A DNA stretch of 64,000 bases. It comes from Hydra vulgaris. Its lineage: Eukaryota > Cnidaria > Hydrozoa > Anthoathecata > Hydridae. Below, one piece after another: positions 1 through 22,851 of the stretch. Numbering within the stretch: position 1 is the first letter of the stretch; the number at the start of each line of letters is the position of its first letter. A program made the translations under genes and the position numbers. The notes under the pieces are model-generated. The model saw only the letters and a list, made by a program, of their open reading frames with translations, was not told the DNA's origin and searched no databases. The stretch is taken from assembly GCF_038396675.1 (NCBI RefSeq), contig NC_088921.1:71746001-71810000 (forward strand), given 5' to 3'.

Positions 1-2
1 TG

Positions 3-65
3 ACTAGCAAACAACTCGACGAAAGTCTAATCAAAGCTGTTCAACTTTTTTATCCAGATAATTAA
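3..65 (+). CDS. 3' end of an unidentified gene (partial)
   Basis: The window opens inside an open frame that gives 20 codons ending at TAA; the last residues read AVQLFYPDN. The next gene starts ten bases after the stop, the same tight spacing seen through the virus-like element, so this is probably the tail of another gene of that element. Nothing can be said about its function from this length. Confidence 0.4.
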   Translation, partial: TSKQLDESLIKAVQLFYPDN

Positions 66-74
66 TTACATCCT

Positions 75-947
75 ATGTTATTTGAATTTCACCATTTAAA
101 TAAAACGTATGAAGATTGGCAAGAAATTATATTTACTTATTTAAAAAATTTTAACTTGGAGTTGAACTTGGAAGAAGAAAAATACAAGGATTTGTATTAT
201 ATATTTATAGCTAAAGACTATAAAAACTGGCTTCATTTGTTTGAAAAACCTTCTCGTCGTTATATGAATTTTGCAGAACAGTCACCTTCATGGAGAACGA
301 CCATGTTTGAAGTATGTCGCATGATAAACGATGATTTTTTAAATATAACCAAAATAACAGTAGAAAAACAACACGAAGAATTAAAAATAAAACTAGAAGA
401 GTTTATTAAAATATATAAACTTTATTACAAATCAAAAAACATGGAAAAGAAATGCACTTCATGGAAAAGCAAACTTAAACAGTCTTTAAAATATCATTTT
501 TTGTTTCCTTATCTATCTAACAAATGGGAGTATGATAACTTGAAGAAAAATTGTAAAATATTAAAACACGTTTATCCTGCTTGCATGGACCAACCGCCTT
601 GCTTTTCGTTCAACGATAAAGTTTTTCATAATGCCTATTACACCATTTATACACCTGCTCATATTTATGAATATTTTATAGAAAAAAAAGTACAACAAGA
701 AGGAGATAAAGTTTACATTTATAAAGCCTTTGAACGTTGTAATTTTCACGAAAAAAGTTTAATAGAAATGTTCCCTACTGCTCAATGGTTTTTTTTCTTT
801 AAAAGAAACTTTAACATTTTAATGGTATTATACAGAAAAGAGGACGAAGTTTATAATTACAATACTAACGAAATAGTATCGAAACAACCTATACACAAAA
901 ACACTAATTATACCAAACATTATGTAACCGCGAAAGAAGGATTATAA
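75..947 (+). CDS. Unidentified 290-residue protein of the virus-like element
   Basis: Complete open frame from ATG to TAA, rich in aromatic residues, lysine and asparagine, with no membrane segment. I do not recognise the family. A lysine/glutamate-rich helical stretch lies around residues 95-130 (start EKQHEELKIKLEEF). A cysteine/proline patch (YPACMDQPPCF) lies near residue 170. It starts ten bases after the upstream stop and is one of the few long genes in this element without stop or frameshift, so it may have been under selection until recently, or the insertion is young. It is a candidate structural or assembly protein only by position near the protease; that is inference. Confidence 0.6.
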   Translation: MLFEFHHLNKTYEDWQEIIFTYLKNFNLELNLEEEKYKDLYYIFIAKDYKNWLHLFEKPSRRYMNFAEQSPSWRTTMFEVCRMINDDFLNITKITVEKQHEELKIKLEEFIKIYKLYYKSKNMEKKCTSWKSKLKQSLKYHFLFPYLSNKWEYDNLKKNCKILKHVYPACMDQPPCFSFNDKVFHNAYYTIYTPAHIYEYFIEKKVQQEGDKVYIYKAFERCNFHEKSLIEMFPTAQWFFFFKRNFNILMVLYRKEDEVYNYNTNEIVSKQPIHKNTNYTKHYVTAKEGL

Positions 948-969
948 GTAAGACATTTTTTTATTTTTT

Positions 970-1122
970 TTATTTTTTTTCCATTTCAAAAAGTTGATAT
1001 ACAAGTTTGTTAATACGAAATATATTATCAAAACATTCGCAAGTGTCTTTTTTTAATACGTGCACGCAACGAATATTGTCTTTTATTAAACGAATAAAAC
1101 TTAATAAAGAATTAAGAAGCAT
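970..1122 (-). CDS. Small unidentified ORF (50 aa)
   Basis: ATG-initiated minus-strand frame between two plus-strand genes. The protein begins with a leucine-rich stretch (MLLNSLLSFIRL) and has a CxC pair in the middle (DTCECF). No family is recognised. It fills an otherwise empty 250-base gap in a gene-dense element, which is the main argument that it is real. It could equally be a chance frame in AT-rich DNA. Confidence 0.3.
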   Translation of the reverse strand: MLLNSLLSFIRLIKDNIRCVHVLKKDTCECFDNIFRINKLVYQLFEMEKK

Positions 1123-1200
1123 ATTCTTTAAATAAAATGAATAAAAAAGTATAAAAAATTATTTTTAAAAAACTTTTTTACATATTTTTTTTATTAAAAA

Positions 1201-1473
1201 ATGAATTGCGTTGATAGCATCATTAAAAAAATTCACAACAATTGCGCAGTGTGCGCGCTAGATGAAGTGTCTCAAAGATATAAACATTATGAAAACAAGT
1301 CTGGAAATTCTTCACCCTCATCTGATCGTGTAGAAGAAGAACATTTTACTGATAAAAAATCATATGATTTTCTACAAAATGTACTCGATTCTAAAAGAAT
1401 AACATTAAATTCTTACAGTATTGAAAAATGTTTTAAAAACAGTCAATTTAAATCCTCAACTTTGTCCTATTAA
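1201..1473 (+). CDS. Unidentified 90-residue protein
   Basis: ATG directly follows an A/T tract (TTTTTTTTATTAAAAA), the same kind of leader found at other genes of the element. The N-terminus has a cysteine cluster (NCVDS, NNCAVCALDEV), followed by an acidic and serine-rich middle (SGNSSPSSD) and a short basic end. The paired cysteines could bind metal, but there are not enough ligands for a known finger. The adenain-type protease remnant follows 90 bases downstream on the same strand. Confidence 0.45.
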   Translation: MNCVDSIIKKIHNNCAVCALDEVSQRYKHYENKSGNSSPSSDRVEEEHFTDKKSYDFLQNVLDSKRITLNSYSIEKCFKNSQFKSSTLSY

Positions 1474-1563
1474 TTAAAAAAACTTTATTTGTTAATATAT
1501 TACACGCTATTGTAACTATATTTATTACGAGTTTTTTTAGTTTAGAAAAAGAAGAAGAATAAA

Positions 1564-2726
1564 ATGGCCGCAGATGAATCTTTGTCTCGCTTTTTTAAAA
1601 ATTCAGAATTTAAAAATTATTTTATAGGAGTATATGCTTTTGATCAGTTGAGTCAATCAAAAACTCATATTCATATTATTAATCAAATGAAAAAAAAATG
1701 GTTCTTTTATCATTTACGGCAATGAAACCAAAAAAGAAGCAAGTCAACATTGGAGAGTGTTGATGAAATAGACAAGGGTCTTTTTTTTTGTTTTGATAGT
1801 TTAGGAGAAGAAAGTGTATTACAACAAATTCCAAAACATTTAAGATTTAATAAATATTTGTTTGAAGCAGTAGAAGAAGATAATAGCAATATACAAATCA
1901 ACAATATTAATATAAGCTACAATGAAATTGAAATTAGTTCTTAAATACGACAATCAAATCATTTACCTACAGAATGGACAGCAGAGAATTGCGACTTTTA
2001 TTGGTTTACCAAATTTATTTTAAAATATAGTGAAATCACTGGCAATCAAAACATATTTTTTTCATACAATAAATTTCCTTTTGAATGGAATGATAGTAGT
2101 TTATGTGGAGCATTTGCCGCTTATTTTGTAGCTCTAGTTTTTTGCAGTGAAAATGTATTATATACTGATCAAATTTGTTTACCTTCATTGTGCAGACTGT
2201 TAAACCATTATTTTTATGAAGTAACAACTCTTCATGCTTCTGCACAAGTTCAAACAAATCTCTATTCATTTTTTCAATTTATTAAAAAGAAGTCTTTCCA
2301 CACCTTGATAACACTGCCAAACATTTGTTTGAAAAAGACATGCAATTGCATTTATATATGAGAAAACAGGAAAAGCTGGAAAGAGATCTATTGTCTATGA
2401 AAACAAAACAAATTCCTCTGAATTATGATATTTATGAAAAGCAAATATTAGCTCAAAATGCTATTAAAAGATTTTCAAAAGATGCAGGATTCTTAAGAAC
2501 AAATTATGAAGCTACGTGGGACAAATTATCTGTATTGGATATTCAGGCTATTCCATCTGTGATGAACGAGGAAAATATTTATTACAAGATCCAAACTGAA
2601 ATGGATAGGATTTATGCAAATAATTACACACGCTTAAAGACAGCCAATCAATTTTTAGATGTTCCTATTGATGAGCGCATGACTAAAAAAGGAATAAAAA
2701 GGCATATAGCTCTGAATTTAATATAA
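1564..2726 (+). pseudogene. Adenain-type cysteine protease remnant with C-terminal helical extension
   Basis: Adenain-type enzymes process capsid and core precursors of adenoviruses and Polintons. Here the pieces occur in order but in different frames. An N-terminal block (FKNYFIGVYAFD) ends at a TGA at 1723. A catalytic-His block (QHWRVL, His codon 1748-1750) is followed by an FDSLGEES strand in another frame (1750-1944). A catalytic-Cys block (SLCGAFAAYFVALVF, Cys codon 2104-2106) follows, and then a lysine/glutamate-rich tail (2325-2726) with no known domain. At least three frame changes and one stop make it non-functional. The His..Cys order, the aromatic after His and the CG motif match the family; the overall call is comparison from memory of family features and would need a profile search. 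It differs clearly from the Polinton protease at 28026-28490, so two protease lineages occur in this window. Confidence 0.6.
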
Positions 2727-2768
2727 ACAAACATGAAGAGGTCAACACACACGCTGCTAGAATAAATC

Positions 2769-3064
2769 ATGGAAGAAAAATGTGCTACGTGTAACGGATA
2801 TGGCGAGTTGTTTTTTGTTGTTTTAAAAGAAAAAAAAACAATCACTTGTTAAAAAACTGCACTATACACGTTAAAAATAAAGAAGTATGGATTTTTAACA
2901 CCGTCACCAAAAAATCAGCAAAAATACATCTTCATAAAACAATTTGTTTAACTTGCAAAGGAAAAAAGTCAATTCTTATAAAACGTTATAAAAAGAAAAA
3001 AGGAGAGGAAAAAGAAGACAATATTTTATTTATACATGTTTATTCTTTAGATGAAATAATATAA
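2769..3064 (+). pseudogene. Small DnaJ-type (CxxCxGxG-like) zinc protein, frameshifted
   Basis: ATG at 2769 opens a frame with CATCNGYGE, a perfect CxxCxGxG motif. The frame hits a stop at 2850 shortly after a run of ten A, and the neighbouring frame continues with a second, imperfect copy (CLTCKGKK) and a basic tail to the stop at 3064. Two such motifs are the usual zinc-binding pair of DnaJ-type cysteine-rich domains; here they form the whole protein of about 98 residues. The break lies near the A homopolymer, so either a sequencing length error or a true mutation could explain it. Function unknown. Confidence 0.45.
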
Positions 3065-3093
3065 TATTTTTTTTACAACTGTCTAATTTTTTT

Positions 3094-3303
3094 TTAATAT
3101 ACTTCAAACACTTTATCTGGAGGCATATAAGGGTTGGCAGGTTTTGTAACAACAAGAACAGGAGGAGTTTTTGTTTTTTTGCCTTTCCACGCTTTTTTTA
3201 TACCGTATAACAGCGAACCCACTTGCAAAGCGTTGGTTACAATTTTAGGGGTTATAAAATCAGCTAATCCTCTTCCTCGTCGGACTCTTCCTCGCTTACG
3301 TAA
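3094..3303 (-). CDS. Short basic/hydrophobic peptide, possible core or lytic peptide
   Basis: Open minus-strand frame of 69 codons with no ATG, bounded upstream by TAA. It starts with an Arg/Gly-rich head (RKRGRVRRGRGLADF), followed by an amphipathic/hydrophobic stretch (NALQVGSLLYGIKKAW) and a proline-rich end. This composition resembles the short cleaved core and membrane-active peptides of adenovirus-like and Polinton virions. It overlaps the last codons of the gene upstream, so a spliced or re-initiated start is likely. Call by composition only. Confidence 0.35.
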   Translation of the reverse strand, partial: LRKRGRVRRGRGLADFITPKIVTNALQVGSLLYGIKKAWKGKKTKTPPVLVVTKPANPYMPPDKVFEVY

Positions 3304-3619
3304 TTAGATCTTTCTCGCTTAGATCTATAATGTCTTTTCTGTCTTTTTTGTTGATAAGCCATTGTCCATGAGAATTTAGAGCAAACAATAAAAAGTTTTT
3401 TTCAGTTATTTCAAAAGAATGTTCTTCTCCGTTTTTATATATAAACACAATAATGAGTTTATCATTGGAACGAGTTACTTTAACAATTCGACCCTGTTTC
3501 AAACAATGTGTCAATGAAAAATATTCCTTTGCATTACTATTAGCTTTAAATAGCGAAATATAAAAATCAGATAATTCTGGAAATGGATAACAAATCTCTG
3601 CATAAGTTTCATAACTCAT
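3296..3619 (-). CDS. Unidentified protein, paralogue A of a tandem pair
   Basis: Complete 107-residue frame. Its middle (KVTRSNDKLIIVFIYKNG then HSFEITEKNF) matches the middle of the next gene upstream (KVTRVNNKAHINFIYDES then HEFEMVYEDF), with the same order of strand-like blocks and a tryptophan (QWLIN versus IWLLE) after it. The two are therefore tandem duplicates. No known family is recognised; the pattern of alternating hydrophobic residues suggests a small beta domain followed by a helix. The pair overlaps by 11 bases, which argues for joint expression. Confidence 0.55.
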   Translation of the reverse strand: MSYETYAEICYPFPELSDFYISLFKANSNAKEYFSLTHCLKQGRIVKVTRSNDKLIIVFIYKNGEEHSFEITEKNFLLFALNSHGQWLINKKDRKDIIDLSEKDLIT

Positions 3620-3908
3620 TTTTTATAATGTCTGCTTCTTCGAGTAGCCAAATATTAAATGACTCTTTAATAACATCAACAAAGTCTTCATATACCATTT
3701 CGAATTCGTGTTTGCTTTCGTCATAAATAAAATTAATATGGGCTTTATTATTAACACGAGTTACTTTGATTTGTTTACTTCCATCCAAACGAAAAAATAA
3801 TTTAAAATTACCATGGACTTGTTTTAAACTATCATTACCTGTAAAGGTAAAAGTTTCTAAATTAATAATTGATTTATAAAATCCTTGTAAACAAGTTTTA
3901 AAATCCAT
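3609..3908 (-). CDS. Unidentified protein, paralogue B of a tandem pair
   Basis: Complete 99-residue frame from ATG at 3908. It shares the core KVTR-(S/V)N-(D/N)K ... F-I-Y block and the later HxFExxxxxF block with the 3296-3619 gene, but the N-terminal 45 residues differ. The C-terminus is acidic. Immediately upstream is an A/T tract (TTTTTTCAAATG-like on the other strand) that may be the promoter region. The function is unknown; duplication and divergence of a small gene is common in large DNA viruses. Confidence 0.55.
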   Translation of the reverse strand: MDFKTCLQGFYKSIINLETFTFTGNDSLKQVHGNFKLFFRLDGSKQIKVTRVNNKAHINFIYDESKHEFEMVYEDFVDVIKESFNIWLLEEADIIKNEL

Positions 3909-4003
3909 TTTTTTTTCAAATGAATTTTTTTTATATCAAAAAACTAAATTTATAGTTTTTTTTATAAAAAAAGAACAGAAAAAACACCATTAAATATTTT
4001 TTT

Positions 4004-4396
4004 TTAACAATTTATTTTTGGTATTTCATTAGCAACATAAAATATTTCTTTATTTACATGAGATATTGTGTATAATTTATTTCTAATATCATAATCCAAT
4101 ATCAAACCGCCGAAAAACGTAGATGATTTTGTGTGTCCAGTATCTTTGCTACCACTTATAATTTCAGCGATACCATTTTTGTATTCATAGGTTAAAATGT
4201 ATTCACCTCGCGAGCTCGTATCTGTTCGTAAATTTTTCAAAGAGATTTTATTATATTTTTTCATATCTTTTAAGAGCCAAATATACTCGTTCAAGTTTTC
4301 TTTTACATGTTGTTGAAATTTTAGTGATAAAACATTTTTTGCAATACTTTTTGTTGTGCGTTCTTCTATGCGTTTGTTTACACGCTTGCAATGAAT
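4004..4396 (-). CDS. Unidentified protein, start not clear
   Basis: Open frame of 130 codons, no ATG near the upstream limit (TGA at 4397-4399). The body reads as ordinary protein (KFQQHVKENLNEYIWLLKD), followed by a tract with many beta-prone residues (GEYILTYEYKNGIAEI) and a possible glycine turn (FFGGLILDYD). It may be a relative of the two proteins 3296-3908 (the IWLL motif and a Y-x-NG turn recur) but the match is weak. A second overlapping frame from ATG 4398-4400 contains several cysteines and histidines and looks less protein-like. Confidence 0.45.
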   Translation of the reverse strand: MHCKRVNKRIEERTTKSIAKNVLSLKFQQHVKENLNEYIWLLKDMKKYNKISLKNLRTDTSSRGEYILTYEYKNGIAEIISGSKDTGHTKSSTFFGGLILDYDIRNKLYTISHVNKEIFYVANEIPKINC

Positions 4397-4456
4397 TCAT
4401 TTTTTGAAATAAACGTTTGCAGAGTTGAGCTTTTTTATTCTTGTTTTTTAATCCGA

Positions 4457-4664
4457 TTAAAATATGGTTTTAAATACACCACCAAGTATAGGTATATTTC
4501 CTAATAGGCTACCAAGGATACCTTTACCACGCTTTTTAAGTATACGTTTACCATCGCCCTTTACCAATTAAAGAATGATGAGATCTAGGGTAAGGTCTTG
4601 ATCTTCGGTAAACAAAAATATATCTTTTAGCACCCCTGTGTCCTCTATGTCTTCTATGTCTCAT
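4457..4664 (-). pseudogene. Small Arg/His/Gly-rich core peptide, one-base frameshift
   Basis: ATG at 4664 starts a run of Arg/His/Gly residues (MRHRRHRGHRGAKRY), and the frame ends after about 38 codons at a GGG run. The neighbouring frame then continues with a basic block (GKRILKKRGKG) and a glycine/hydrophobic block (ILGSLLGNIPILGGVF) ending at TAA. A single extra base in the GGG run near 4560 explains the change. Basic head plus hydrophobic glycine-rich tail is typical of the small core peptides (mu/X-like) of adenovirus-like virions and Polintons. Its position beside other basic genes supports a virion-core role, by inference. Confidence 0.5.
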
Positions 4665-4681
4665 ATGTCTTCTATGTTTTT

Positions 4682-5101
4682 TTAAATATTTCTTTGTTTA
4701 TCTTGATCCACTTTTGTTAAAACAAAACGATATATCGGTTTTCCTACTCGATCCATTTCACGATTTTGTTTATTATTTATATACTTGCTTTTTGTTTTTC
4801 GATAACACATCAGTGCTTTTCTACAATATTGACGCTTTATTTTTTTCAAATTTTTCTTAGCTCTTTTACGTCTTAGAGCTCTTAGTTCTGTATTATTAGG
4901 ATCAGTTAACTCGTTTTCATCAAATGAGGTCCTGTCAAAAAATTCAAAAAAAGCATCCCTATGAAAAGGCCATTTTCCATCTACTGTATATTTGGGTAAT
5001 TTAGATGTATATTTGGGTCTTAAATTACTTTTATATGTAGGTCTTGAAAATAAATTCCGTTTTACAATCATACGGGAAAAATCAATGTCGTCTGCAGCCA
5101 T
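4682..5101 (-). CDS. Basic protein, paralogue of 6597-6929
   Basis: Complete 139-residue frame from ATG at 5101. The C-terminal third contains many Arg/Lys (ALRRKRAKKNLKKIKRQY) and ends in NKQNREMDRVGKPIYRFV. The same arrangement, NK-x-NR-x-x-x-RVGK-x-I-x-R, ends the protein at 6597-6929, so the two are paralogues with different N-termini. The N-terminus here is proline/tyrosine-rich (RPTYKSNLRPKY). Composition fits a DNA-condensing or minor virion protein; no family is recognised. It is on the same strand as the neighbouring core-peptide gene, 18 bases apart. Confidence 0.6.
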   Translation of the reverse strand: MAADDIDFSRMIVKRNLFSRPTYKSNLRPKYTSKLPKYTVDGKWPFHRDAFFEFFDRTSFDENELTDPNNTELRALRRKRAKKNLKKIKRQYCRKALMCYRKTKSKYINNKQNREMDRVGKPIYRFVLTKVDQDKQRNI

Positions 5102-5476
5102 TTTGACTTTTTTTTCTTTGACTTTTTTTGACTTTAACTTTTGACTTTAACTTTTTTTATTGACTTGTATTTTTTTTGACTTTGACTTTTTTAACTTTAA
5201 CTTTTTTTTTATATCTTTTTTTTACAAGATAAAAAAACATGGTGTCACCCTGACACAACCTTACTTATTCCATCTTTACTTTATCTTAGTAGGCCTACTT
5301 ACTTATGTTTTTCTTACAGTGTTTATTTTTTATACGGTCGTATTTCTTAATTACTTACTTAACCTTACTTAGTCCTTACTTAACTTACTTAGTCCTGCCT
5401 GATTTTTCTTAGCCTGCTTACTCACACACCCGTACGCTCACTCGTTCTCACTTCACTAAGTTTTACGATTTAGTGT
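5102..5476. repeat. Low-complexity TTTGACTTT / TTACTTAC tracts, no gene
   Basis: From 5102 to about 5230 the sequence is an irregular tandem of TTTTTGACTTT and TTTAACTTT words. From 5260 to 5410 short TTACTTA and CCTTACTT words recur. No plausible gene is seen. It separates the minus-strand core genes from the repeat block downstream. Confidence 0.6.
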
Positions 5477-5479
5477 TTT

Positions 5480-5712
5480 TCACTCCACAAACTCACTAAT
5501 TCTTTCGAGTTAGTGTTCACTAATTCTAACCAGTTAGTGTTTATCATTGAACTTTCTATACTTTCAGGACGCACTCACTAAATCTTTCGAGTTAGTGTTC
5601 ACTAATTCTTGCGAGTTAGTGTTTAACATTGAACTTTCTATACTTTCTAGACGCACTCACTAATTCTTTCGAGTTAGTGTTCACTAATTCTTTCGAGTTA
5701 GTGTTTTTAACA
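5480..5712. repeat. Direct repeat of about 82 bp containing small stem-loops
   Basis: Three copies of a unit that reads ACTCACTAATTCTTTCGAG, TTAGTGTTCACTAATTC and ends in ATTGAACTTTCTATACTTTC. Within each unit CACTAA and TTAGTG form arms around TTCTTTCGAG-like loops, twice per unit. Unit boundaries at about 5480, 5570 and 5650. Such iterated stem-loops in an intergenic gap of a virus-like element could be a replication origin or a regulatory array; that is inference. Confidence 0.6.
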
Positions 5713-5754
5713 TTGAACTTTCTAAACTTTCTAAACTTTCTAAACTTTCTACTA

Positions 5755-5845
5755 CCTTCAACGAGAGTCGAACCCACGACGTTTTAATGGCATGGCGTTT
5801 GAAACATAGTGCGGCGAGCGAATGCACTATGCTACGTCTAAGTGA
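5755..5845 (-). ncRNA. tRNA-like sequence with Pol III box A/B words
   Basis: On the minus strand a box-A-like word (TAGCATAGTGCATTCGC) is followed by a good box B (GGGTTCGACTCTCG) about 60 bases later. That distance is longer than in an intron-less tRNA, and I cannot pair the acceptor ends convincingly. It may be a tRNA gene with intron, a tRNA pseudogene or the head of a SINE. A structure search (tRNAscan) would decide. Confidence 0.35.
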
Positions 5846-6122
5846 TGGTTCATGGAGTTTTGAATTCATTTAAATTGTTATTTTTACACTTATCACAGAG
5901 TTTTTTTCTTCGCAGTGTTTTTAAAAAGTTGTTTACTCCCTATTTTAATCTCTTTAATCTTGTTCATAAAAACGGTATTAAAACTTTCTAAATTTAACTA
6001 CCATGACACAGCATTTTCTTTTTATTGCATAAAGTTGCTTCACTTTGTCTTTTATATTGCGTTAACCTGTAGAGATTAAATTCTATACATAAAAAGCGTT
6101 TTTTTTTTGCTTACAAAATCAA

Positions 6123-6579
6123 ATGGCTCGAACAAGAATTGGAAAACGCACCAAGACAATGGAAAAAAAAAAATACTCGAAGATTTAGAACAAGAATTGG
6201 AGTTTGTCGTTGAGGATTTAACAATACCTCAAGAAGTTTTATAATCGAAGAAGATAACGATATTTTCGAAAAACTATTTAATCTAAAAAGTATTGAAAAA
6301 GATGATGTAGCAAAAGACAACAGAGAGGATAAAGAAATACATTTTGTCGTGGAAAGACACGAAAAAGACATTGAAAAAGTTGATAAAAAAGCAAAAAAAA
6401 AAAGAAAAAATCGTTAAAAAAGTAAGTTGTTTTTACTCTATTTTTCAAAATATAAATTTTTAAGAACGTTTTTTTCATAAGGTTTTTTTTTATTTTAGAA
6501 AAAGAGTAAATTGTACAAGCGACGAAACGCTAAAAGAAAATTAAAATATTTAAATGATAAAATAAAATATCTTTCATAA
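6123..6579 (+). pseudogene. Spliced basic/acidic protein with ARTR/GKRTK start, frameshifted
   Basis: ATG 6123 begins MARTRIGKRTKTMEKK and is lost at a run of eleven A. Shifted frames continue with an acidic block (EQELEFVVED, then EEDNDIFEKLF) and a very basic block (KKAKKKRKNR). A GTAAGT donor at about 6421 and a TTTTATTTTAG acceptor at about 6500 bracket an 80-base intron. The second exon encodes a basic tail (YKRRNAKRKLKYLNDK) ending TAA 6579. At least two frame changes occur. The MARTR start resembles the H3-like MARTK stretch in the divergent gene at 6597-6929. A chromatin or core role is possible but unproved. Confidence 0.45.
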
Positions 6580-6596
6580 ATTTTTTTTACAATAAA

Positions 6597-6929
6597 TTAT
6601 TTTCTATTTTTACGTCTTATGTTTGCTTCTTTTAATTGATGTTTAATATCGACATATGGTTCAGCAGTATGAACCCAACGTTTTATTCTTTTCCCAACTC
6701 TTCCAAGTTTACGGTTTGTTTTATTATCTTTATATCTGTTATTTTTTCCTCGTAAACAAGATAATGTTCTTTTACAATTGCTCGGTAAATACTGACATTC
6801 AGCCTGTGTCGAACTCTGTTTTGTACTCGTTTGTGTTTGAACTGCTTTTTTTGTTCTAGGAACTGTTGTTTTTGTACGCGCCATATTGACAGTGTCTAAT
6901 GATCTAGGAGTATACCTTATTTTAGCCAT
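6597..6929 (-). CDS. Basic core-like protein with histone-H3-tail-like stretch
   Basis: Complete 110-residue frame. Residues 16-29 read MARTKTTVPRTKKA, close to the start of the histone H3 tail (ART K at the modified lysine). It is internal in this frame, but the ATG at that point could itself serve as start, which would expose the mimic at the true N-terminus. The C-terminal half is basic and shares NK-x-NR..RVGK with the protein at 4682-5101. No globular histone fold is visible. A DNA-condensing virion protein or a chromatin-reader decoy are the two readings; both are inference. Confidence 0.55.
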   Translation of the reverse strand: MAKIRYTPRSLDTVNMARTKTTVPRTKKAVQTQTSTKQSSTQAECQYLPSNCKRTLSCLRGKNNRYKDNKTNRKLGRVGKRIKRWVHTAEPYVDIKHQLKEANIRRKNRK

Positions 6930-7039
6930 TTTTATAAAAAAATGATATTTTTTATTTATATATATTTTTGCTTATTACAAAAACAACATCGTTTTTTTTT
7001 ATATAAAACAACTCATATTTTTTTTAGTAAAAAAAAAAA

Positions 7040-7694
7040 ATGGTAACAATAAACATTAACAAAAGGATATATCCTTTGGAAAAAGAAAACGTATTTAAAT
7101 TATTTATTGTAAAAGATGAAAAAAAAAATACCATTAGCATTAGTCAAGCCTTATTATGCTGCATTGGGTAATTTTTTATTTTTTTAAAAAAAAATGTAAT
7201 ATTATTAATAACTTTATAACCATCATTTTTTTTCTTTTAGATAAACGACTAGCAGTCGTAAACGACTTAATCGAAGCCCTTAGAAAAAAGCAAAAGCTTG
7301 ACTCACCTCGTAAGTTTAACTTTACTGCTTTTTTATTAATAAGATAAATATTTTTTTTTTGCAAAAGTTTCTTTTTTTTTTTAGAAACGCAATATACAGA
7401 AAACGAAATTTTGTGAATTTTTTTTTTGTATATTTTTGTAGAAATAAATTTTTTTATAGTCTTTTTTTTTTTGTTTATTTTTGTTTATTTTGTTTATATT
7501 TCTATTTTTATATATACAAAACATTTATTATTTTTTTATAATATATCTTAGAAAAAAATGATGAAAATAATAATAAATACCATAGCAAAAGAACTTCACA
7601 CCCATTGGAAGCAATTAGCAATATATTTAAATTTTTAGAAGAAACGAAATTAAAAAAATTGATGGAAGTTATAAGAAAAACTTTGATAAAATAA
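7040..7694 (+). CDS. Spliced gene, possible death-fold protein
   Basis: Coding blocks separated by short AT-rich introns. Block 1 (ATG 7040 to about 7167) ends ISISQALLCCIG at a GTAATT donor. An acceptor CTTTTAG near 7240 leads into DKRLAVVNDLIEALRKKQK, which meets a GTAAGT donor at 7310. An acceptor near 7384 leads to a short block, and a last block from about 7556 contains SHPLEAISNIFKFLEETKL and ends TAA 7694. The LL-C-IG-x-K-R-L-x-VVNDLIEAL pattern resembles the last two helices of a death-effector domain; the fit is suggestive only. The final junction is not resolved in frame. The gene heads a run of adaptor-like genes. Confidence 0.4.
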
Positions 7695-7897
7695 ATTTTT
7701 TTTTAATTATTTACATTACACACCACAAAGACAAAAAAAGAGCCATTAACCATTTGTATTTTATTTTAACACGATGGCAAAACGATATTGACAACGAAGA
7801 ACTTTTACTTAACTTAACAGAATGTAAAATATTTATAATAAATTATTTACGATAAATTTTTATAATAAATATTATATTTTTTTAGCAAAAAATAAAA

Positions 7898-8215
7898 ATG
7901 AATTTTATACAAATTAAACTGAAAATAGCTGGACGCTTACAATGGCAATAGGAAAGTTTGGCTCAATATCTTGGATATAAAAGAAGAGAAATTGAATGTA
8001 TACAACAAGACTATCGAGACACGAATGAAAGAATCTTTAGAGTTTTAACTTTATTATATCAAAAACACAGAACAGAAATTGAAGCAGCACGTATTTTACA
8101 CAATACATTATGGTTTTGGTCGTTAGACCTTTCAACTGTCAATGAAAAAAATCAAGAACTTTTAAATAACATAAACGAAAGCATGACCCTATTACAAAAC
8201 TTTATGTTACAATAA
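7898..8215 (+). pseudogene. Death-domain protein with one in-frame stop
   Basis: ATG 7898 opens a frame that meets TAG at 7949 and then continues uninterrupted to 8215, about 105 residues in all. The part across and after the stop has the death-domain signature: tryptophan in helix 1-2 (LQW), then LAQYLGYKRREIECIQQD, a regular spacing of hydrophobics, and a late tryptophan pair (LWFW). Death domains join receptors and adaptors such as FADD, TRADD or MyD88. A further open block with intron signals (7728-7831) lies directly upstream and may be a first exon. The single stop suggests recent decay; a tryptophan or glutamine codon would have been there. A TRAF-like gene follows 0.8 kb downstream. 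Confidence 0.55.
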
Positions 8216-8365
8216 TTTTTTTTGTAACTTTTTTTTATTTTTTAGCAAACTAATATATTAAAAACTGATTCAATATATCAAAAAGTGTGGATGGTAAGAA
8301 TATTAACTTGTATTTTTTTGATTCTTTATAAATTTTTTTATACATTTTATTTTTTTTTCTCCTAG

Positions 8366-8699
8366 TTATGGTGAATATATCAACGAGTGGACTATTTGTT
8401 ACCACGACTTGTTATTGTCAGACAGAGAAGAAAAAGAAATAGAAAAAATTATGAAATGAGAAGAAATGTCAGAAGAAGACGAAATTTATTTACAACAATT
8501 ACTACAAGAAGACATGGAAGAAATGGAAGAAACGGATTATATTGAAGAACTGAAAAAGCAAATGATGGAAGAAAAAGTAGAAAAAGAAGTAGATCAAATA
8601 GAAATAGAAATTCACGAAATTATAAATGGAATAGACTTTGAACAATATATCATCGATGTTATGAATAAAATGGATGATTTGCCAGAACTAAATTTGTGA
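8366..8699 (+). pseudogene. Very acidic coiled protein, in-frame TGA
   Basis: After an acceptor (TTCTCCTAG at 8365) the frame reads GEYINEWTICYHDLL and then an acidic run, meets TGA at 8457-8459, and continues from ATG 8466 as SEEDEIYLQQLLQEDMEE to TGA at 8699. About a third of the residues are Glu/Asp, with heptad-like leucines and methionines, so a coiled coil is likely. A preceding block (8245-8290) ending at a GTAAGA donor may be its first exon. No family is recognised. It sits between the death-domain and TRAF-like genes. Confidence 0.4.
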
Positions 8700-8743
8700 T
8701 TATTTTTTTGTACATATATCTTTTTTTTAGGTAACTAAAAAAA

Positions 8744-8977
8744 ATGAATAATAATGATGATGATTACAGCGGCATGTATCCTGGTTTTTTTGATGTTTTT
8801 AAAGATAAAGAAAATGAAGAAATAGAAAATATCTCTTTTAATAACGTATTTCATGTTATAAACAACGACGAACACATCATTTTAAACATGGACGATTTTT
8901 TTTTTTTTTTTAATTTTTTTTATCTACTTGCCATGTTTGTTAATACATTATATTTAATCATTCTATTTTGTTTTTGA
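8744..8977 (+). CDS. Small acidic protein with hydrophobic C-terminus
   Basis: ATG follows the recurrent leader of this region (TTTTTTTTAGGTAACTAAAA). The first 50 residues are acidic (NNNDDDYSGMYPGF, EEIENISFNNVFHVI), and the last 25 are hydrophobic (FFFFNFFYLLAMFVNTLYL), which would form one membrane segment. The poly-T that encodes the phenylalanine run may instead be an intron pyrimidine tract, so the hydrophobic part could be non-coding. No family is recognised. Confidence 0.35.
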   Translation: MNNNDDDYSGMYPGFFDVFKDKENEEIENISFNNVFHVINNDEHIILNMDDFFFFFNFFYLLAMFVNTLYLIILFCF

Positions 8978-9758
8978 AAACTAGTGTTTAATTTTGTTAT
9001 GTTTTTTATATAAATAAATGTTTTTTTTTCACCATTCTTTAATAAAAAATGGCAGACAACACATATCCATGTTGTTTTTGTGACAAAGAATTTACTAAAG
9101 AACAACTTATGAATCATCAAATAGAATGTTCTACAGATCAATTCTCACACGAATGTTTTACGTGTAAGAAAAAAGTGCAAGATTTGTTAAACCACGAATG
9201 CGATTATGAATTTCTAGACATACAAAAAATATGCTTTTTTTGTAATATCAAAGTAGATAATAAAGACTACTATGAACACTCTGTAATCTATTTTCAATGT
9301 TATAATGAACAACAAAATCAATATTTCGAGCAAATTATTCAAGACGAAAAGAAAAATTTAAATTATTTGAATCTTTCTATAAACCACATCATGAGTGGAA
9401 TGAAAAATCATCAAGAAATCCTAACTAAACAAATAGTCAACTCAAAAGAAAAAGAGCAAGAAATTAAAAAACTGAAAGAAGAGAATACTAAACTTCATCA
9501 AACCCTAGAAGAAATGAACAAAGAAATGACAGAATTAAAAAATCTCTTATATGACAACATGATGGTTTTAGCAAATCAAGAAGATGTACAAAATCTCAAT
9601 CAAGAAATAACAAAACTTAATCAAATCGTAGAAGAAAACAGTACAGAATTCTTAGCATTAAAAAAATCAATTCAACAACCACAAGTAAAGCAACGCCTTT
9701 TTAAAGACAAACATATCATCATACTCGATCAAATGAATCTAAGACTGCTATCAGATGA

Positions 9759-9776
9759 AGCTTATTATTCGCAAGC
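9759..9776 (+). repeat. Left 18-bp target-site duplication
   Basis: AGCTTATTATTCGCAAGC, repeated exactly at 10062-10079. It belongs to the MATH-domain coding sequence that was duplicated when the 285-bp element between the copies inserted. Confidence 0.85.
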
Positions 9777-10061
9777 CCTGACGGAAAAAAACACATCTAA
9801 ACTACTTTAGTATTTGTGTTAATACCGATTGCACCCTCTAACATCTTGTGCAATTTCTGTCCGCTTTTCTTTATGCTATCTTTCTAACCCGACTTCTTCT
9901 ATCTTTTATTCTAACATATCTTCGTTTTTCCAAAACGCACTCTACTCTTGGCCGTAGAGCGGTAATGACGCTCCCCTACTAGGGGCTGAACATGTCTCTG
10001 CGTGCCATGGTATAGTGGTCTCCGTATGGCAATTAGCTGGAGGAGAATAAACTACAATACC
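9777..10061 (-). mobile_element. SINE-like 285-bp insertion in the TRAF-like gene
   Basis: Sequence between the two 18-bp duplications. It is less AT-rich than its surroundings and shares nothing with the gene. Read on the plus strand it contains a box-A-like word (TGGTATAGTGG at about 10009), so Pol III origin is possible, but no clear box B or A-tail is seen; the side next to 9777 has a short A7 run. The target duplication length fits target-primed (LINE-driven) integration. Orientation is a guess. Alternative: a non-autonomous DNA element, less likely because no inverted ends are seen. Confidence 0.6.
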
Positions 10062-10079
10062 AGCTTATTATTCGCAAGC
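10062..10079 (+). repeat. Right 18-bp target-site duplication
   Basis: Exact second copy of AGCTTATTATTCGCAAGC. The TRAF-like reading frame resumes in phase from this copy, so removing one copy plus the insert restores continuity of the gene. Confidence 0.85.
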
Positions 10080-10500
10080 TGTTTACTCATCTGAAGGGTA
10101 TTATTATCGTATAAAAATGTATACTCGAAGCACAAATGTAAACAATGTAGCCATTTTCTTCCAACTAATTCGAAGTGAGCTCGATGATGTTTTAAAATGG
10201 CCCTTTGCAAAAAAAATATTTTTTACTCTAAAAAATAATGATAAATTTTTTGCTCATACTATCACCCCCGAAAATTATATTCAAAGTTTAAACGCGAGTT
10301 CTTTTGATAAACCTACTGAAGAATATAATGTAGCTGTTGGTTTCCCCAATTTTATTTCGCACGAAGAACTAAAACAATTTATTATTAATAATAACTTATT
10401 TATTCCTATTACTATTCAATAATATATTTATGTAAAAAATGGTTTTTCCTAATTTTTTTGTATGTATTCATATTTTTTATCGCTATTTTTTATACATTAT

Positions 10501-10527
10501 TTTTTTAGATTAACTAATAAAAAAAAT
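10501..10527 (+). promoter_or_regulatory. Recurrent acceptor-plus-leader before ATG
   Basis: A T-run, AG, then (A/T)TAACTAATAAAAAAAATG. The same arrangement occurs at 8722-8746, 11060-11087, 11813-11842 and in weaker form at 12315-12337 and 12720-12740, each time ending in a start codon. It reads as a splice acceptor followed by a short common 5' leader, compatible with cis-splicing of a shared leader or spliced-leader trans-splicing. Confidence 0.55.
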
Positions 10528-10997
10528 GAATTCAGTAGAAATATTCAGACAAATCAGTCTTGAACCAACTATTGCCAATGTGAAAAGTATCAGATTCATG
10601 CTCAGAATACCAAAAGGAATCAAAGAAAATTTAAAAACTGCAATGGATATCGTAGAGTACTTCAAAGACAACATTATAAAAGATGAAAGAGGTCGTATTT
10701 ATTAAACTATGGAAAGTAAATTGGAATTTTTACTTGTAATGTGTAAAGCCATTCATCGTTTAGACATTGTGAATAAATATAAAAATAAAATACCGCGATT
10801 GCCAACATACGAAGCTTTCTTCGTATGTTGGCAATCGCATGATTAAAAATCTACCACCTGTTTGTTCTCCATTAAATACACTTTATCCAAGTGCTGTCAT
10901 TAAAGCCATGCAAGAAGAACTTTTGAATTTTTATCATTTTCTTAATGCTGAACCACCTAAAGCACCAGAATGTGCCCAAGAACCTGATTTCCTCTAA
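10526..10997 (+). pseudogene. Death-effector-domain-like protein, stop and frameshift
   Basis: DED proteins (FADD, caspase-8, FLIP) assemble death-receptor complexes. ATG 10526 opens 59 codons with EIFRQISLEP, VKSIRFMLRIPKG and AMDIVEYFKDNII, then an in-frame TAA (10703), then the same frame goes on with KLEFLLVMCKAIHRLDIVNKY. The layout (helix 1, long helix 2-3 ending in IP, LF/EYF-like helix, then a last L-x-x-x-x-AI-x-RLDIV helix) fits a DED, whose helix 6 usually ends R-x-D-L. A 20-bp perfect hairpin at 10795-10838 then breaks the frame, and a proline-rich tail (LNAEPPKAPECAQEP) follows in another frame to TAA 10997. Fit is by pattern; a profile search is needed. Confidence 0.45.
10795..10838. 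repeat. Perfect 20-bp hairpin inside the DED-like gene
   Basis: GCGATTGCCAACATACGAAG, a four-base loop CTTT, then the exact reverse complement. It adds an inverted copy of coding sequence and shifts the reading frame, which looks like a recent fold-back templated duplication rather than a functional terminator. Confidence 0.85.
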
Positions 10998-11084
10998 AAA
11001 CTTTTTTTTTTGGAAACAATTCAATTTTTTTATTGTATTTTTTTATATATTTGTAATTTTTTTTTAGATAACTAATAAAAAATA

Positions 11085-11812
11085 ATGGGCAGCAACTAGC
11101 GCAATATTAGCTACATACTTGAAAAAGAATTTAGTTCATTTCACTACTTTCTGCATAATCGTAGAAAACAAATGGAACGAGATAAAAAAGTCAAAAAGTT
11201 GGACAAAAAAACTAAAGAACGTTGCGTTTATTTGGAAAACATTCATTCTCACATTAAAAACTTTGAGGATGAAACACTGATTTGGGTTTATCCTCACGAG
11301 CGACATTTTTCTTATTATGTTTTTCATTACGATATAATGATAGATTAGATAACATCAACAAATTTAACTTTGAAAATCAATAAAAACTCACCTTGAAAGA
11401 TTTATGTAAATTTATGTTTTGATTATGAAGATTTATGTTTTGAGTTTGAACAGTTACAAAATAAAATCATTTCTGTATTCGATAAAACTAAACTACCACT
11501 CTCCAAATGGAAAAATAAAGATGATATTAGATTATTGTTTTACTGCTTTCATAAACACATCTTTTTCGAATGGAATGTCAAAAAAAAGAAACATTATTTT
11601 TTCATCTTCAAAGATGTTATCTTTACAATTTATTTCATTTACTTTTTACAGAAATATCGTATTTTGCTTATCCACATAAACAACTAGAAATAGATATAAT
11701 GAAAACACTATATCATTTAGTAATGGAATTTATAAACTGGGCCAAACAACAATATTTTTATATTACAGAACCTTGTTTTATTCATGTTAATATTGTAAAA
11801 CAATTTTTTTAA
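11085..11812 (+). pseudogene. Unidentified tandem-family gene, copy 1
   Basis: ATG 11085 after the recurrent leader; in-frame TAG at codon 5, then a clean frame (LEKEFSSFHYFLHNRRKQME ... ETLIWVYPHERHF) to 11348. A second block at about 11427-11640 (DKTKLPLSKWKNKDDIRLLF) and a third after a TTTTTACAG acceptor (YHLVMEFINWAKQQYFYITE) end at TAA 11812. The second and third blocks match copy 2 downstream in order and in key residues (INWA-x-QQY). Function unknown; strongly basic coiled segment early, aromatic-rich later. Confidence 0.45.
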
Positions 11813-11839
11813 TTTTTTTTTAGATAACTAATAAAAAAA

Positions 11840-12322
11840 ATGCAAGTACAAAGAAAAAGTTTCGAAGAATACAACATGCATTATCACAAATGGGTATGGT
11901 TTTGTGGTCAAACAAAATATGAAAAAATACCAACGTTAAAACAATTATGTAAAAGAAATATGGGATTTACTAGAATACAAGTTGAAATACAAACATTTTT
12001 AAAAGAACTTGCCAAAGAAATACCAATTGAATACTACGATTCAGAATATATTATTTGGGATCAATCCTTTTACAAAACAACTGATATTAGTCCTCGTTTT
12101 TTATTTAGAAAACATTTGGAATATTTTTTCGATCAAGCTTTTTTTATAAATATAAGCATTGAACTTTTTAATTGACATTATATTTAACCTTTTTTAAATA
12201 ATACACAATATGAACATTTTTATATTTTATTAAAAAACTATATTAATTGGGCTTTACAACAATATTATTTTGTTTCTACAGATCAATTTGTACATATAAA
12301 GGATGTTATTTTATATTTATAG
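11840..12322 (+). pseudogene. Unidentified tandem-family gene, copy 2
   Basis: ATG follows the recurrent leader (TTTTTTTTAGATAACTAATA). The first block gives 111 residues (start MQVQRKSFEEYNMHYHKWVW, with CGQTKYEKIPTLKQLCK later) and stops at 12175. About 40 bases on, a second block reads FYILLKNYINWALQQYYFV and ends TAG 12322. The INWA-x-QQY(F/Y)-(Y/F)(V/I) end is the same as in copy 1. A small intron or a frameshift may separate the two blocks. Tandem copies with the same leader suggest gene expansion in the element. No known family recognised. Confidence 0.45.
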
Positions 12323-12334
12323 ATAGAAAAAAAA

Positions 12335-12974
12335 ATGAATAAAATAAAATATGGCTATTCCAAAAAAAAACCATCCAAAAAAGTAAGAAATCAAATGAGA
12401 GGTATATTCATTTTCTTTTAATTTTTTAAAACAAATAAAAATTTTTTATTCAACCTATTTTTCTTTTTTTATAGCAATGTTTCCCTACCTTTTCTTAATG
12501 AAAAAAGAAGCGATGATGAAGTCACGCTTATTAAATGAGCGCTATTTCTGCGTTAAAAAATGTGGAATATGCCAGAGTTGTCAACTCAACAAACAACTTT
12601 TTGTATTATTTTTATTCAGAAATATATATTTTTTTTATTACATTTTGTCTTTTTTTTATTCCTTATTTTTTATTGCTTTTTTATTCCTATTTTCATACAA
12701 CTTTATACTAACATTCTTTTTTTTTTTAGATATAAAAATGAATAATAATAATAATGACAACTGGGAGTTGGAACTCGGCGCACCACCGTTTGAATTCAAA
12801 CAACCTCACTTAAAATTAAAAAGACCTCTCCGAGGTCTTAATTTGGAAAAATGTATAAAACTAGAATTAAAAGACTTAAAAAAAGAAAAAGAGCGGATAT
12901 GCAAGGGTGCACAAGAAGAGTGGACATGCGACGCTCCCCCATTCGAATTAAATTATAAATATTTATACGAATAA
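12335..12974 (+). CDS. Spliced basic protein and downstream PPFE-repeat protein
   Basis: Exon 1 from ATG 12335 is basic (YSKKKPSKKVRNQM) and meets a GTATAT donor at about 12400. An acceptor TTTTTTATAG at 12475 opens a block containing CGICQSCQLNKQ. After a long T-rich stretch and an acceptor TTTTTTAG at 12729, ATG 12738 starts a clean 78-residue frame to TAA 12974. Its two ends carry a repeat (LGAPPFEFKQP and DAPPFELNYK), and between them lies a Lys/Leu-rich helix. Whether it is one gene with three exons or two genes is not clear. Last gene of the element before non-coding repeats. Confidence 0.4.
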
Positions 12975-13040
12975 ACTTATTTGTTTTTTTTTTTAATTGT
13001 AACCTATTTTTAATTGTAACAGTTTTTTTTATATGAATAA

Positions 13041-13231
13041 ATTTTTACACCTGATCCTCTATTATATCTGCGCACGCGCATTACGGATCAAATTAAAATT
13101 TTTTACACCTGATCCTCTATTATATCTGCGCACGCGCATAATGGATGAAATTAAAATTTTTTACACCTGATTCTCTATTAAATCTGCGCACGCGCATTAC
13201 GGATCAAATTAAAACTTTTTACACCTGATCC
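13041..13231. repeat. Tandem repeat of about 59 bp with CpG core
   Basis: Three full copies and the start of a fourth of a unit beginning TTTTTACACCTGATCCTC and containing CTGCGCACGCGCATTACGG. The CGCACGCGCA core stands out in AT-rich DNA. Immediately after, G/C homopolymer-like tracts (CCCCCTTTTTTTTTGCT, twice more) follow to 13310. The block marks the edge of the virus-like element and may be part of its terminus. Confidence 0.75.

Positions 13232-19066: not shown

Positions 19067-19069
<3 letters not shown>
16976..19069. other. AT-rich DNA, mostly without features
   Basis: Contains a TTTG microsatellite at about 16990-17020 and short palindromes (for example the ACAATTACTATATAGTAATTGT palindrome at about 17917). 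A possible cysteine-rich frame lies at 17264-17485. The rest shows no coding signal. Confidence 0.45.
17264..17485 (-). CDS. Cysteine-rich ORF fragment, doubtful
   Basis: Minus-strand frame of 73 codons with paired cysteines: CAPCISPLI, CPKCSFSIS and, after VIEMINNIPEKC, a QCCC cluster. The C-x2-C spacing looks like a zinc-binding module, perhaps a fragment of a transposon-encoded RING-like or ring-related protein. The frame continues open upstream without ATG. No family assignment is safe. Confidence 0.25.
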   Translation of the reverse strand: MYSFCAPCISPLINNKLLSKTICPKCSFSISIDGLTTSNNVIEMINNIPEKCKQCCCRLLKVSQLLENMIFFL

Positions 19070-19150
<81 letters not shown>

Positions 19151-19186
19151 CACACACATATATATATATACACATATACATATTTT
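19070..19186. repeat. (TA)n microsatellite with TG/CA variants
   Basis: Uninterrupted TA dinucleotides for about 60 bases, then TG- and CA-containing variants. Confidence 0.95.
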
Positions 19187-19267
19187 TTTTGTATGGGCCT
19201 TTATATCAAGCATATATGGTAAAATACCGCATATATAGGCCTTTTAATAAAAATCCCGCATGGGCTT

Positions 19268-21860: not shown

Positions 21861-21999
21861 AAATTTTAAAGACACATTAGTACATCAAGTTTTAATAAGA
21901 AACCAGTTTTTATTAACGATGAAGGCAAGGTTTTTAAATGCATATCAAAACGTTGTAATTTATGTTCAATGTACTTTCAGTTTGTTAACCATTTTACCA

Positions 22000-22662: not shown

Positions 22663-22851
<189 letters not shown>

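What the first reader, a model, noticed from the sequence alone, without database searches (positions are those of the whole stretch)
7040..10997. Cluster of death-fold and TRAF-type signalling adaptors in a virus-like element
Seen: a death-domain protein (7898-8215), a TRAF-like zinc-finger/coiled-coil/MATH protein (9049-10422), a death-effector-domain-like protein (10526-10997) and perhaps another death-fold protein (7040-7694) are adjacent and spliced, on one strand, downstream of an adenain-type protease and core-like basic genes. Known: these modules are the adaptors of TNF-receptor and Toll/IL-1 signalling, and viral FLIPs are captured DED proteins. Inferred: an invertebrate DNA virus or Polinton relative carried a cassette to manipulate host apoptosis/NF-kB. 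A capture of several different adaptor folds together would be unusual.
Basis: partly seen in the sequence, partly recalled or inferred. Interest (0 to 1): 0.88.

Follow-up and report, generated by a model that had tools for sequence, protein, structure and literature searches.

The report
Virus-borne death-receptor adaptor genes in Hydra
The window holds the decayed end of an integrated virus-like DNA element of Hydra, whose better-kept relatives elsewhere in the same genome carry several genes that resemble the animal's cell-death and TNF-receptor signalling adaptors, probably to block the host's suicide response to infection.

Summary
The reading holds and is larger than reported. Window 1 to about 13,000 is the right end of an integrated virus-like element in Hydra vulgaris. 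A C14 copy spans 42,423 bp between 70-bp inverted repeats and 6-bp target duplications. Genes read in two other copies: rve integrase, PolB-like frame, PIF1, dUTPase, and an ATPase 60% identical to IVa2 of "Hydra MELD virus".

Open relatives confirm a Death domain (14 of 14 at E<=0.01, best 1.8e-8), a second (10 of 11 at E<=0.1, best 4.2e-6), a RING-less TRAF (MATH 1.1e-18) and a DED (11 of 12, under Pfam's cut-off), adjacent and in order. A third Death domain (9.6e-12) lies outside the window.

92 of 150 TRAF hits have the Death gene on the same strand within 6 kb; 59 of 88 capsid-candidate hits have TRAF or Death on the opposite strand within 60 kb (random mean 1.1). dN/dS medians 0.26-0.45.

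In the window all four genes are broken, not spliced. 24 of 27 database relatives of the TRAF are listed as Hydra TRAF2/3/5-like. Blocking death-receptor signalling is inferred, not shown.

The parts
1..13056 (.). right-hand part of the integrated element (decayed copy); its left part continues to about 25 kb left of the window
   Evidence: gene order shared with L011-L016; sequence related to the C14 copy's right end at 12996-13056 (64 nt, 83%); capsid-candidate gene of the same copy at C2:71722157, homology to the C5 copy down to L017:4790; exact right end in the window not found
1564..2726 (+). adenain-like protease candidate, frames broken in the window
   Evidence: 387-aa open relative L014:7009-8172; no Pfam or PDB match; His-Trp, Asp and Cys-Gly motif read by eye
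7040..7425 (+). upstream gene of unknown function, apparently spliced; pieces conserved in sister copies
   Evidence: tblastn of pieces against 21 cassette loci; GT...AG breaks in L011
7558..7855 (+). Death-domain gene DD1, frame broken in the window
   Evidence: tblastn match in 22 of 23 loci, frame of 93 aa or more in 12 of 23; Pfam Death 1.3e-5 for the first member, 10 of 11 members at E<=0.1; PDB profile hits RIPK1 1.4e-3, FADD 0.04
7898..8215 (+). Death-domain gene DD2, one in-frame stop in the window
   Evidence: Pfam 14 of 14 open relatives, best 1.8e-8; PDB profile hits THOC1 3.5e-4 and RIPK1 2.4e-3
8394..8699 (+). small acidic gene of the cassette, no known domain
   Evidence: match in 22 of 22 loci; no Pfam match
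9049..10422 (+). RING-less TRAF-like gene: three Cys/His knuckles, coiled coil, MATH; interrupted in the window
   Evidence: (TRAF3 1.3e-13, coiled coil plus MATH)
9777..10061 (.). 285-bp insertion inside the TRAF gene; 18-bp target duplication at 9759-9776 and 10062-10079
   Evidence: other copies align up to both sides of the site without it
10526..10997 (+). DED gene, broken by a stop and a hairpin insertion in the window
   Evidence: 11 of 12 open relatives match Pfam DED; comparison with a profile of nine other Hydra DEDs 81%, E 1.2e-5
11086..12974 (+). further right-end genes of the element, no known domain
   Evidence: related frames in L011, L013, L015

Best explanation
This is a decayed copy of a high-copy, recently mobile, integrating dsDNA virus-like element of Hydra vulgaris (adintovirus/Maverick-like, relative of 'Hydra MELD virus'). 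Open copies encode a set of small stand-alone adaptor proteins: DD1, DD2, a RING-less TRAF and a single DED in one cassette, and a third Death domain (DD3) beside the PolB-like gene. Shown: the domains, the linkage, the element's boundaries, dN/dS well below 1. Inferred: the genes were captured from an animal, and each protein is the interaction half of a host adaptor without its effector half, so it occupies host death-receptor/FADD, DED-caspase and TRAF docking sites and stops the signal. DD3 and the DED look like the two halves of a FADD-type protein made separately, and the TRAF keeps its trimer and receptor-binding parts but has no ubiquitin-ligase RING. The likely result is delay of apoptosis and of TRAF-dependent alarm signalling while the virus replicates.
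For: Domains. Linkage: 92 of 150 TRAF hits with DD2 on the same strand within 6 kb, 85 of the 92 at 1.7-2.3 kb upstream, 1 on the opposite strand; 59 of 88 capsid-candidate hits with TRAF or DD2 on the opposite strand within 60 kb against a random mean of 1.1, maximum 6 in 200 trials; 34 of 88 with a Pfam Death hit 7.9-11.5 kb away on the same strand, 0 opposite, random mean 0.17. Cassette order in 22 of 22 loci, 20 of them chosen for an open TRAF frame. Element: 42,423 bp on C14, 70-bp inverted repeats, 6-bp duplications that differ between two chromosomes; integrase 2.7e-7; 60% identity to IVa2 of Hydra MELD virus. dN/dS medians DD2 0.45, TRAF 0.34, DED 0.26. A Hydra frame with DED 7.7e-13 and Death 1.9e-8 exists (L052); its Death part matches DD3 at 97.3%, E 2e-11 and DD2 at 90.9%, E 1.1e-6. 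64 of 89 DED hits in the genome are over cut-off. dsRNA raises caspase-8 and TRAF3-like genes in the cnidarian Nematostella (PMC11251625, passages).
Against: No binding, expression or infection data. The DED stays under Pfam's gathering score, found no PDB match, and single viral DEDs had no blastp match under E 0.04 to the nine other Hydra DEDs. DD1 matches the FADD-like Death part only weakly (9.5%). The FADD-like DED+Death frame occurs at seven places, several near contig ends, so that it is an ordinary host gene is assumed, not tested. The capsid candidate and protease matched nothing, and no PolB profile hit was found, so 'virus' rests on ATPase, integrase and boundaries. The one tested viral TRAF (ISKNV ORF111L) has a RING and induces apoptosis (PMC3352826, passages), so capture need not mean inhibition. 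TRAF-binding motifs in the DED tail were not clearly commoner than in shuffles. 5 of 88 capsid candidates have TRAF, and 5 of 88 DD2, on the same strand within 60 kb. No relatives found in four IMG/VR scans.
Confidence: 0.6

Rival explanations
1. The element is as described, but the adaptors activate signalling: the TRAF, DD and DED proteins nucleate host complexes to drive NF-kB survival signalling or timed cell death for release.
For: Isolated death-fold domains can nucleate assemblies (general knowledge); ISKNV viral TRAF binds TRADD and induces caspase-8 apoptosis (PMC3352826, passages).
Against: The TRAF here lacks the RING that ISKNV ORF111L has; the DED is single and has no caspase part.
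Confidence: 0.18
2. The genes have become Hydra genes: the host now uses some element copies as its own TRAF/DD/DED repertoire, for instance to block infection by related viruses.
For: 24 of 27 database relatives are named Hydra vulgaris TRAF2/3/5-like; many open frames persist.
Against: Copies are highly repeated, include identical recent ones (DD2 identical at 10 loci) and sit inside a bounded element; the window copy is broken in all four genes.
Confidence: 0.1
3. The death folds and MATH serve the virus itself, for example as oligomerisation modules in assembly or genome handling, not host signalling.
For: Death folds also occur outside signalling: DD2's best solved match is THO complex subunit 1; DD3 lies between PolB-like and IVa2-like genes.
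Against: Five adaptor modules of one pathway occur together; DD3 most resembles the Death part of a FADD-like Hydra frame.
Confidence: 0.1
4. Ordinary host adaptor genes that happen to neighbour a virus insertion.
For: NCBI gene names; the genome has many other DED and Death exons.
Against: Fixed geometry at many loci; genes lie inside inverted-repeat and target-duplication bounds; 11,360 bp identical but for one gap on two chromosomes.
Confidence: 0.02

Closest known systems
Hydra MELD virus (taxid 2707310, unclassified dsDNA virus) / adintoviruses
   Same: packaging ATPase 60% identical (P0029), same host genus by name; integrase and PolB-like gene as expected for adintoviruses (recalled)
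   Different: the IVa2 protein comes from a 17,997-base contig; my TRAF and DED searches returned no protein of that virus; the adintovirus paper is not held, so its gene list was not checked
Polinton/Maverick elements, including the one at window 26.7-44.9 kb
   Same: rve integrase, a large frame with an endonuclease VII part (blastp 6.6e-7 between the two), terminal inverted repeats and a 6-bp target duplication (the latter recalled for Polintons)
   Different: capsid candidate shows no match to the neighbour's double-jelly-roll capsid; carries PIF1, dUTPase and the adaptor set
Viral TRAF, ISKNV ORF111L (Iridoviridae)
   Same: viral protein with coiled coil and MATH
   Different: ORF111L has a RING; this one has Cys/His knuckles instead and travels with DD and DED genes
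Viral FLIPs (herpes- and poxviruses; recalled)
   Same: virus-encoded DED protein
   Different: vFLIPs have two tandem DEDs (recalled); this has one DED and a proline-rich tail
FADD
   Same: DD3 and the DED each resemble one half of a Hydra FADD-like frame or its relatives
   Different: encoded as separate proteins, about 27 kb apart on opposite strands in the C14 copy

Membership tests
Adintovirus / Maverick-Polinton | retrovirus-type (rve) integrase | tested here: met
   C5 copy, L022:9697-9999, Pfam rve 2.7e-7, 31.2 bits, just under the 32.6 cut-off; the neighbouring Polinton's integrase scores 30.9
[quoted passage not shown]
   no Pfam polymerase match; blastp 6.6e-7 over 309 aa to the neighbouring Polinton's frame, which itself has no Pfam polymerase match; TDTDS motif
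Adintovirus / Maverick-Polinton | adenain-like protease | tested here: inconclusive
   no Pfam or PDB match; motif by eye only
Adintovirus / Maverick-Polinton | double-jelly-roll or hexon capsid protein | tested here: inconclusive
   no Pfam, PDB or neighbour match
Adintovirus / Maverick-Polinton | packaging ATPase | tested here: met
   60% identity to IVa2 of Hydra MELD virus; Pox_A32 9.2e-4, below cut-off
Adintovirus / Maverick-Polinton | terminal inverted repeats and 6-bp target duplication | tested here: met
   70 bp perfect; GTCATC on C14, TATACA on C10; two copies examined, window copy's ends not found
Adintovirus / Maverick-Polinton | particles that spread between cells | not testable with these tools
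   -
TRAF family | TRAF-C (MATH) domain of TRAF type | tested here: met
   TRAF-mep_MATH 1.1e-18; best solved matches TRAF3 and TRAF5
TRAF family | TRAF-N coiled coil | tested here: met
   TRAF3 match spans coiled coil and MATH; a low-confidence model also shows long helices
TRAF family | N-terminal RING (absent in TRAF1, recalled) | tested here: not met
   no RING match; frame begins with three Cys/His knuckles
Death domain (DD1, DD2, DD3) | profile match over curated cut-off | tested here: met
   first members: DD1 25.7, DD2 33.4, DD3 45.3 bits against 22.6; the window's own DD2 fragment 20.5
DED | significant profile match | tested here: met
   11 of 12 at E<=0.01, best 7.5e-7
DED | reaches Pfam gathering score (35.9 bits) | tested here: not met
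   29.7 bits; second family 32.2
Viral FLIP | two tandem DEDs | tested here: not met
   one DED stretch per protein of 139-149 aa

The most novel reading that the evidence does not exclude
The element encodes a near-complete miniature death-receptor adaptor set (FADD split into a Death-domain and a DED protein, two more Death-domain proteins and a RING-less TRAF) that may assemble a virus-controlled signalling complex rather than act as separate decoys; and much of the 'TRAF-like' gene expansion annotated in Hydra vulgaris may be viral.
Probability: 0.25. Interest if true: 0.9.

Novelty: new variant of a known kind. Interest (0 to 1): 0.76.

Why it matters
Viruses are known to carry single captured adaptors (vFLIP, recalled; one viral TRAF). 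Here one element family carries five modules of the same pathway, in a model animal of an early animal branch with a tractable laboratory strain. It makes testable whether extrinsic apoptosis and TRAF signalling are antiviral in cnidarians, and it warns that at least 24 Hydra 'TRAF2/3/5-like' database entries match the element's TRAF at 56-94% identity.

Tried and rejected
IMG/VR scans with the capsid candidate, a PolB-like part, the ATPase alignment and the TRAF alignment found no relatives; some patterns were weak. Protein search with the DED: 6 candidates, none at E<=0.01. TRAF-binding motifs in DED tails: 8 of 19, 9 of 19 and 0 of 19 against shuffle means 4.4, 5.6 and 0.08; not distinct. 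DED against DD2 profiles: no similarity. AlphaFold model of a TRAF protein: mean pLDDT 59, not used for fold search. Ten other frames of the element gave no adaptor domain at E<=0.1; PHROGs gave only endonuclease VII and weak hits for ten proteins. A count of 32 of 33 capsid candidates with a Death hit was on a list I picked by eye; I replaced it by 34 of 88. Host-gene reading rejected. Introns in the four genes rejected. A tRNA-like reading of 5760-5850 was not backed by ARAGORN or Rfam. A tree of the MATH domain with other TRAFs was not made: the MATH family search of this genome did not complete. In the random controls some contig lengths were guessed (three, one).


Full report
What the window is. 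The window maps to G000:C2:71746001-71810000, a 911.5-Mb genome in 15 contigs. The 27 proteins related to the element's TRAF all carry the name Hydra vulgaris, so I take the host to be Hydra vulgaris. Window 1 to about 13 kb belongs to a large virus-like element whose left part lies outside the window. A separate Polinton lies at 26.7-44.9 kb.

The observation. On the window's own letters, DD2 (7898-8215) gives Pfam Death 5.4e-4, under the cut-off, the MATH part 1.4e-19 and the DED part only 0.068. Relatives elsewhere in the genome settle the matter. DD2: 14 of 14 aligned relatives match Death at E<=0.01, best 1.8e-8; as a profile it reaches the THOC1 and RIPK1 Death domains. TRAF: MATH 1.1e-18, and a profile that aligns coiled coil plus MATH to TRAF3 at 1.3e-13. 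DED: 11 of 12 match at E<=0.01, best 7.5e-7, under the gathering score, with no PDB match; its profile aligns over the domain to a profile of nine other Hydra DEDs at 81%, E 1.2e-5, while single-sequence blastp to those nine stays at E 0.04 or worse. DD1, the suspected further death fold, is at 7558-7855: 10 of 11 relatives match Death at E<=0.1, the first at 1.3e-5, PDB profile hits RIPK1 1.4e-3 and FADD 0.04, and it is similar to DD2 (97.1%). The members of these alignments were picked for open frames.

How the window copy is broken. DD1 has a frame break; DD2 has an in-frame stop; the TRAF gene holds a 285-bp insertion flanked by an 18-bp duplication, and other copies align to both sides of the site without it; the DED gene has a stop and a hairpin insertion. 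The gene at 7040-7425 is different and does show GT...AG breaks between conserved pieces. Open copies of these genes exist elsewhere.

A third Death domain. A genome search with Pfam Death (150 scored of 665 candidates) showed hits at the positions of element copies. In L022 (C5 copy) this is an 83-aa frame between the PolB-like and the IVa2-like genes, Pfam Death 9.6e-12; a second copy in L020 gives 3e-9. In the window's own copy it is broken (L010). It is the most FADD-like part: 97.3%, E 2e-11, over 49 aa to the Death part of a Hydra frame that carries DED and Death together (L052). DD2 matches the same part at 90.9%, DD1 only at 9.5%. That FADD-like frame occurs as DED and Death hits side by side at seven places (C2, C3 twice, C8, C11, C12, C14), several close to contig ends; I assume, but did not test, that it is a host gene family.

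The genes belong to the element. TRAF hits: 150 scored of 538 candidates; DD2: 150 of 551; capsid candidate: 90 rows, of which I used 88, leaving out two pieces of one gene at C5:40109458-40110837. 92 of 150 TRAF hits have DD2 on the same strand within 6 kb, 85 of them 1.7-2.3 kb upstream; 1 has it on the other strand. 59 of 88 capsid-candidate hits have TRAF or DD2 on the opposite strand within 60 kb; for TRAF alone 49, of which 44 at 30-41 kb; on the same strand 5 of 88. Random places give a mean of 1.1 and a maximum of 6 in 200 trials. 34 of 88 have a Death-family hit on the same strand at 7.9-11.5 kb, none on the opposite strand; random mean 0.17, maximum 2 in 300 trials. The lists are truncated, so the fractions are lower bounds. 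In 20 fetched loci chosen for a TRAF match with a long open frame, plus L011 and the window, DD2, the acidic gene, TRAF and DED are found on one strand in 22 of 22 (two DD2 matches are weak or partial); DD1 in 22 of 23 (L016 added).

Boundaries. Copies on C14 and C10 are identical over 11,360 bp but for one gap at the right side and over 1,664 bp at the left, then stop sharply. The two ends are 70-bp perfect inverted repeats, the unit is 42,423 bp on C14, and it is flanked by GTCATC on C14 and TATACA on C10, each on both sides. The middle of the C14 copy was not read; its capsid candidate and DD3 are known from searches. DD2 is identical at 10 loci. This is a recently mobile unit, and the TRAF, Death and DED genes lie inside it. 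The window copy's own ends were not found.

What the element is. Genes were read in the C5 copy and the window's copy: an ATPase 60% identical to IVa2 of Hydra MELD virus (taxid 2707310, unclassified dsDNA virus); an rve integrase 2.7e-7; PIF1 1.7e-36; dUTPase 5.1e-21; a PolB-like frame with an endonuclease VII part, related to a frame of the Polinton in the same window (6.6e-7), neither with a Pfam polymerase match. The capsid candidate and the protease matched no family or solved structure; I name them from position and recalled motifs. I file it as adintovirus/Maverick-like with those features open.

Selection. Nei-Gojobori dN/dS medians over pairs of open frames: DD2 0.45 (16 frames), TRAF 0.34 (19), DED 0.26 (19), acidic gene 0.27 (20). 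Pairs are not independent, the method is simple, frames were picked as open and a few have odd ends; still, all four point to protein-level constraint. The next gene to the right gives 0.64 (6 frames).

A second family. L055 has a DED 40% identical to this family's (Pfam 1.3e-7). Of 8 copies that I picked from the list by their score, 7 have a Death hit 22.1-22.3 kb away on the opposite strand. So the pairing of DED and Death genes is probably older than this family. Its flanks were not read.

Mechanism. Domain knowledge: FADD joins receptor Death domains to DED-caspases; TRAFs join receptor tails to ubiquitin signalling through a RING. The element's proteins keep the binding parts and lack the effector parts: no RING, no caspase, DD and DED in separate proteins. 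The simplest outcome is competitive block. The one tested viral TRAF I found has a RING and induces apoptosis (PMC3352826, passages read), so the sign could be reversed. Apoptosis genes including caspase-8 and TRAF3-like genes rise after dsRNA in Nematostella (PMC11251625, passages read), so the pathway is plausibly antiviral in cnidarians.

Novelty. Ten library searches showed in their listings one paper on a viral TRAF; in the 20 of 712 rows listed no paper used the terms viral FADD, vFADD or viral death domain, and most rows matched 'viral trafficking'. Papers seen by passages: PMC11071296 (no 'death domain', no TRAF), PMC11071308, PMC5294986 (larger viral inserts in Hydra vulgaris reported), PMC3352826, PMC11251625. 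The adintovirus paper that, as I recall, introduced MELD viruses is not held, so prior notice of these genes cannot be excluded.

Noticed in passing
window 26757-44942: A Polinton: double-jelly-roll capsid (1.4e-41), A32-type ATPase (9.1e-8), rve integrase (3.5e-7), a large frame with an endonuclease VII part; a 568-aa frame without Pfam match sits inside it (37040-38746).
   Followed up: partly
window 20627-21865: hAT transposase (Dimer_Tnp_hAT 3.6e-7); long inverted simple-repeat arms at 19048-19190 and 22647-22789 lie around it.
   Followed up: partly
window 9759-10079: 285-bp insertion with an 18-bp target duplication; part reads like a tRNA-derived SINE by eye, but neither ARAGORN nor Rfam reported it.
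   Followed up: partly
L009:8008-8565 (C2:71744008-71744565): A second MATH-domain gene (1.3e-18) in the window copy, just left of the window; not looked for systematically in other copies.
   Followed up: partly
L019, L020 and C2:71680645: Another copy of the element about 41 kb to the left of the window's copy (capsid-candidate hits at 71680645 and 71722157).
   Followed up: no
L055 and C1:53638396, C6:1594993, C10:15075570, C11:31485121, C8:51735990, C15:13855372, C9:64919571: Second, diverged family with a DED gene (40% identical) and a Death gene about 22 kb away in 7 of the 8 copies picked.
   Followed up: partly
G000 C2:72331146, C3:70826591, C3:70889675, C8:1434437, C11:79032, C12:86718617, C14:43365411: A FADD-like pair of DED and Death hits side by side at seven places, several close to contig ends: a repeated, perhaps subtelomeric gene whose own status is open.
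   Followed up: no
protein P0026: An NCBI Hydra gene model that appears to fuse the TRAF N-terminus to part of the neighbouring DED gene.
   Followed up: no
L038 (DD2 gene): The first part of this Death-domain frame is unlike the other 15 in the alignment, suggesting replacement or recombination.
   Followed up: no
window 5491-5736 and 13039-13245: Tandem repeats, 82 bp x3 and 58-bp spacing x3, within or at the end of the element copy.
   Followed up: no
G000, Pfam DED search: 64 of 89 DED hits in the genome are over cut-off, many on C1, C2 and C14; which of them are host genes was not tested.
   Followed up: partly
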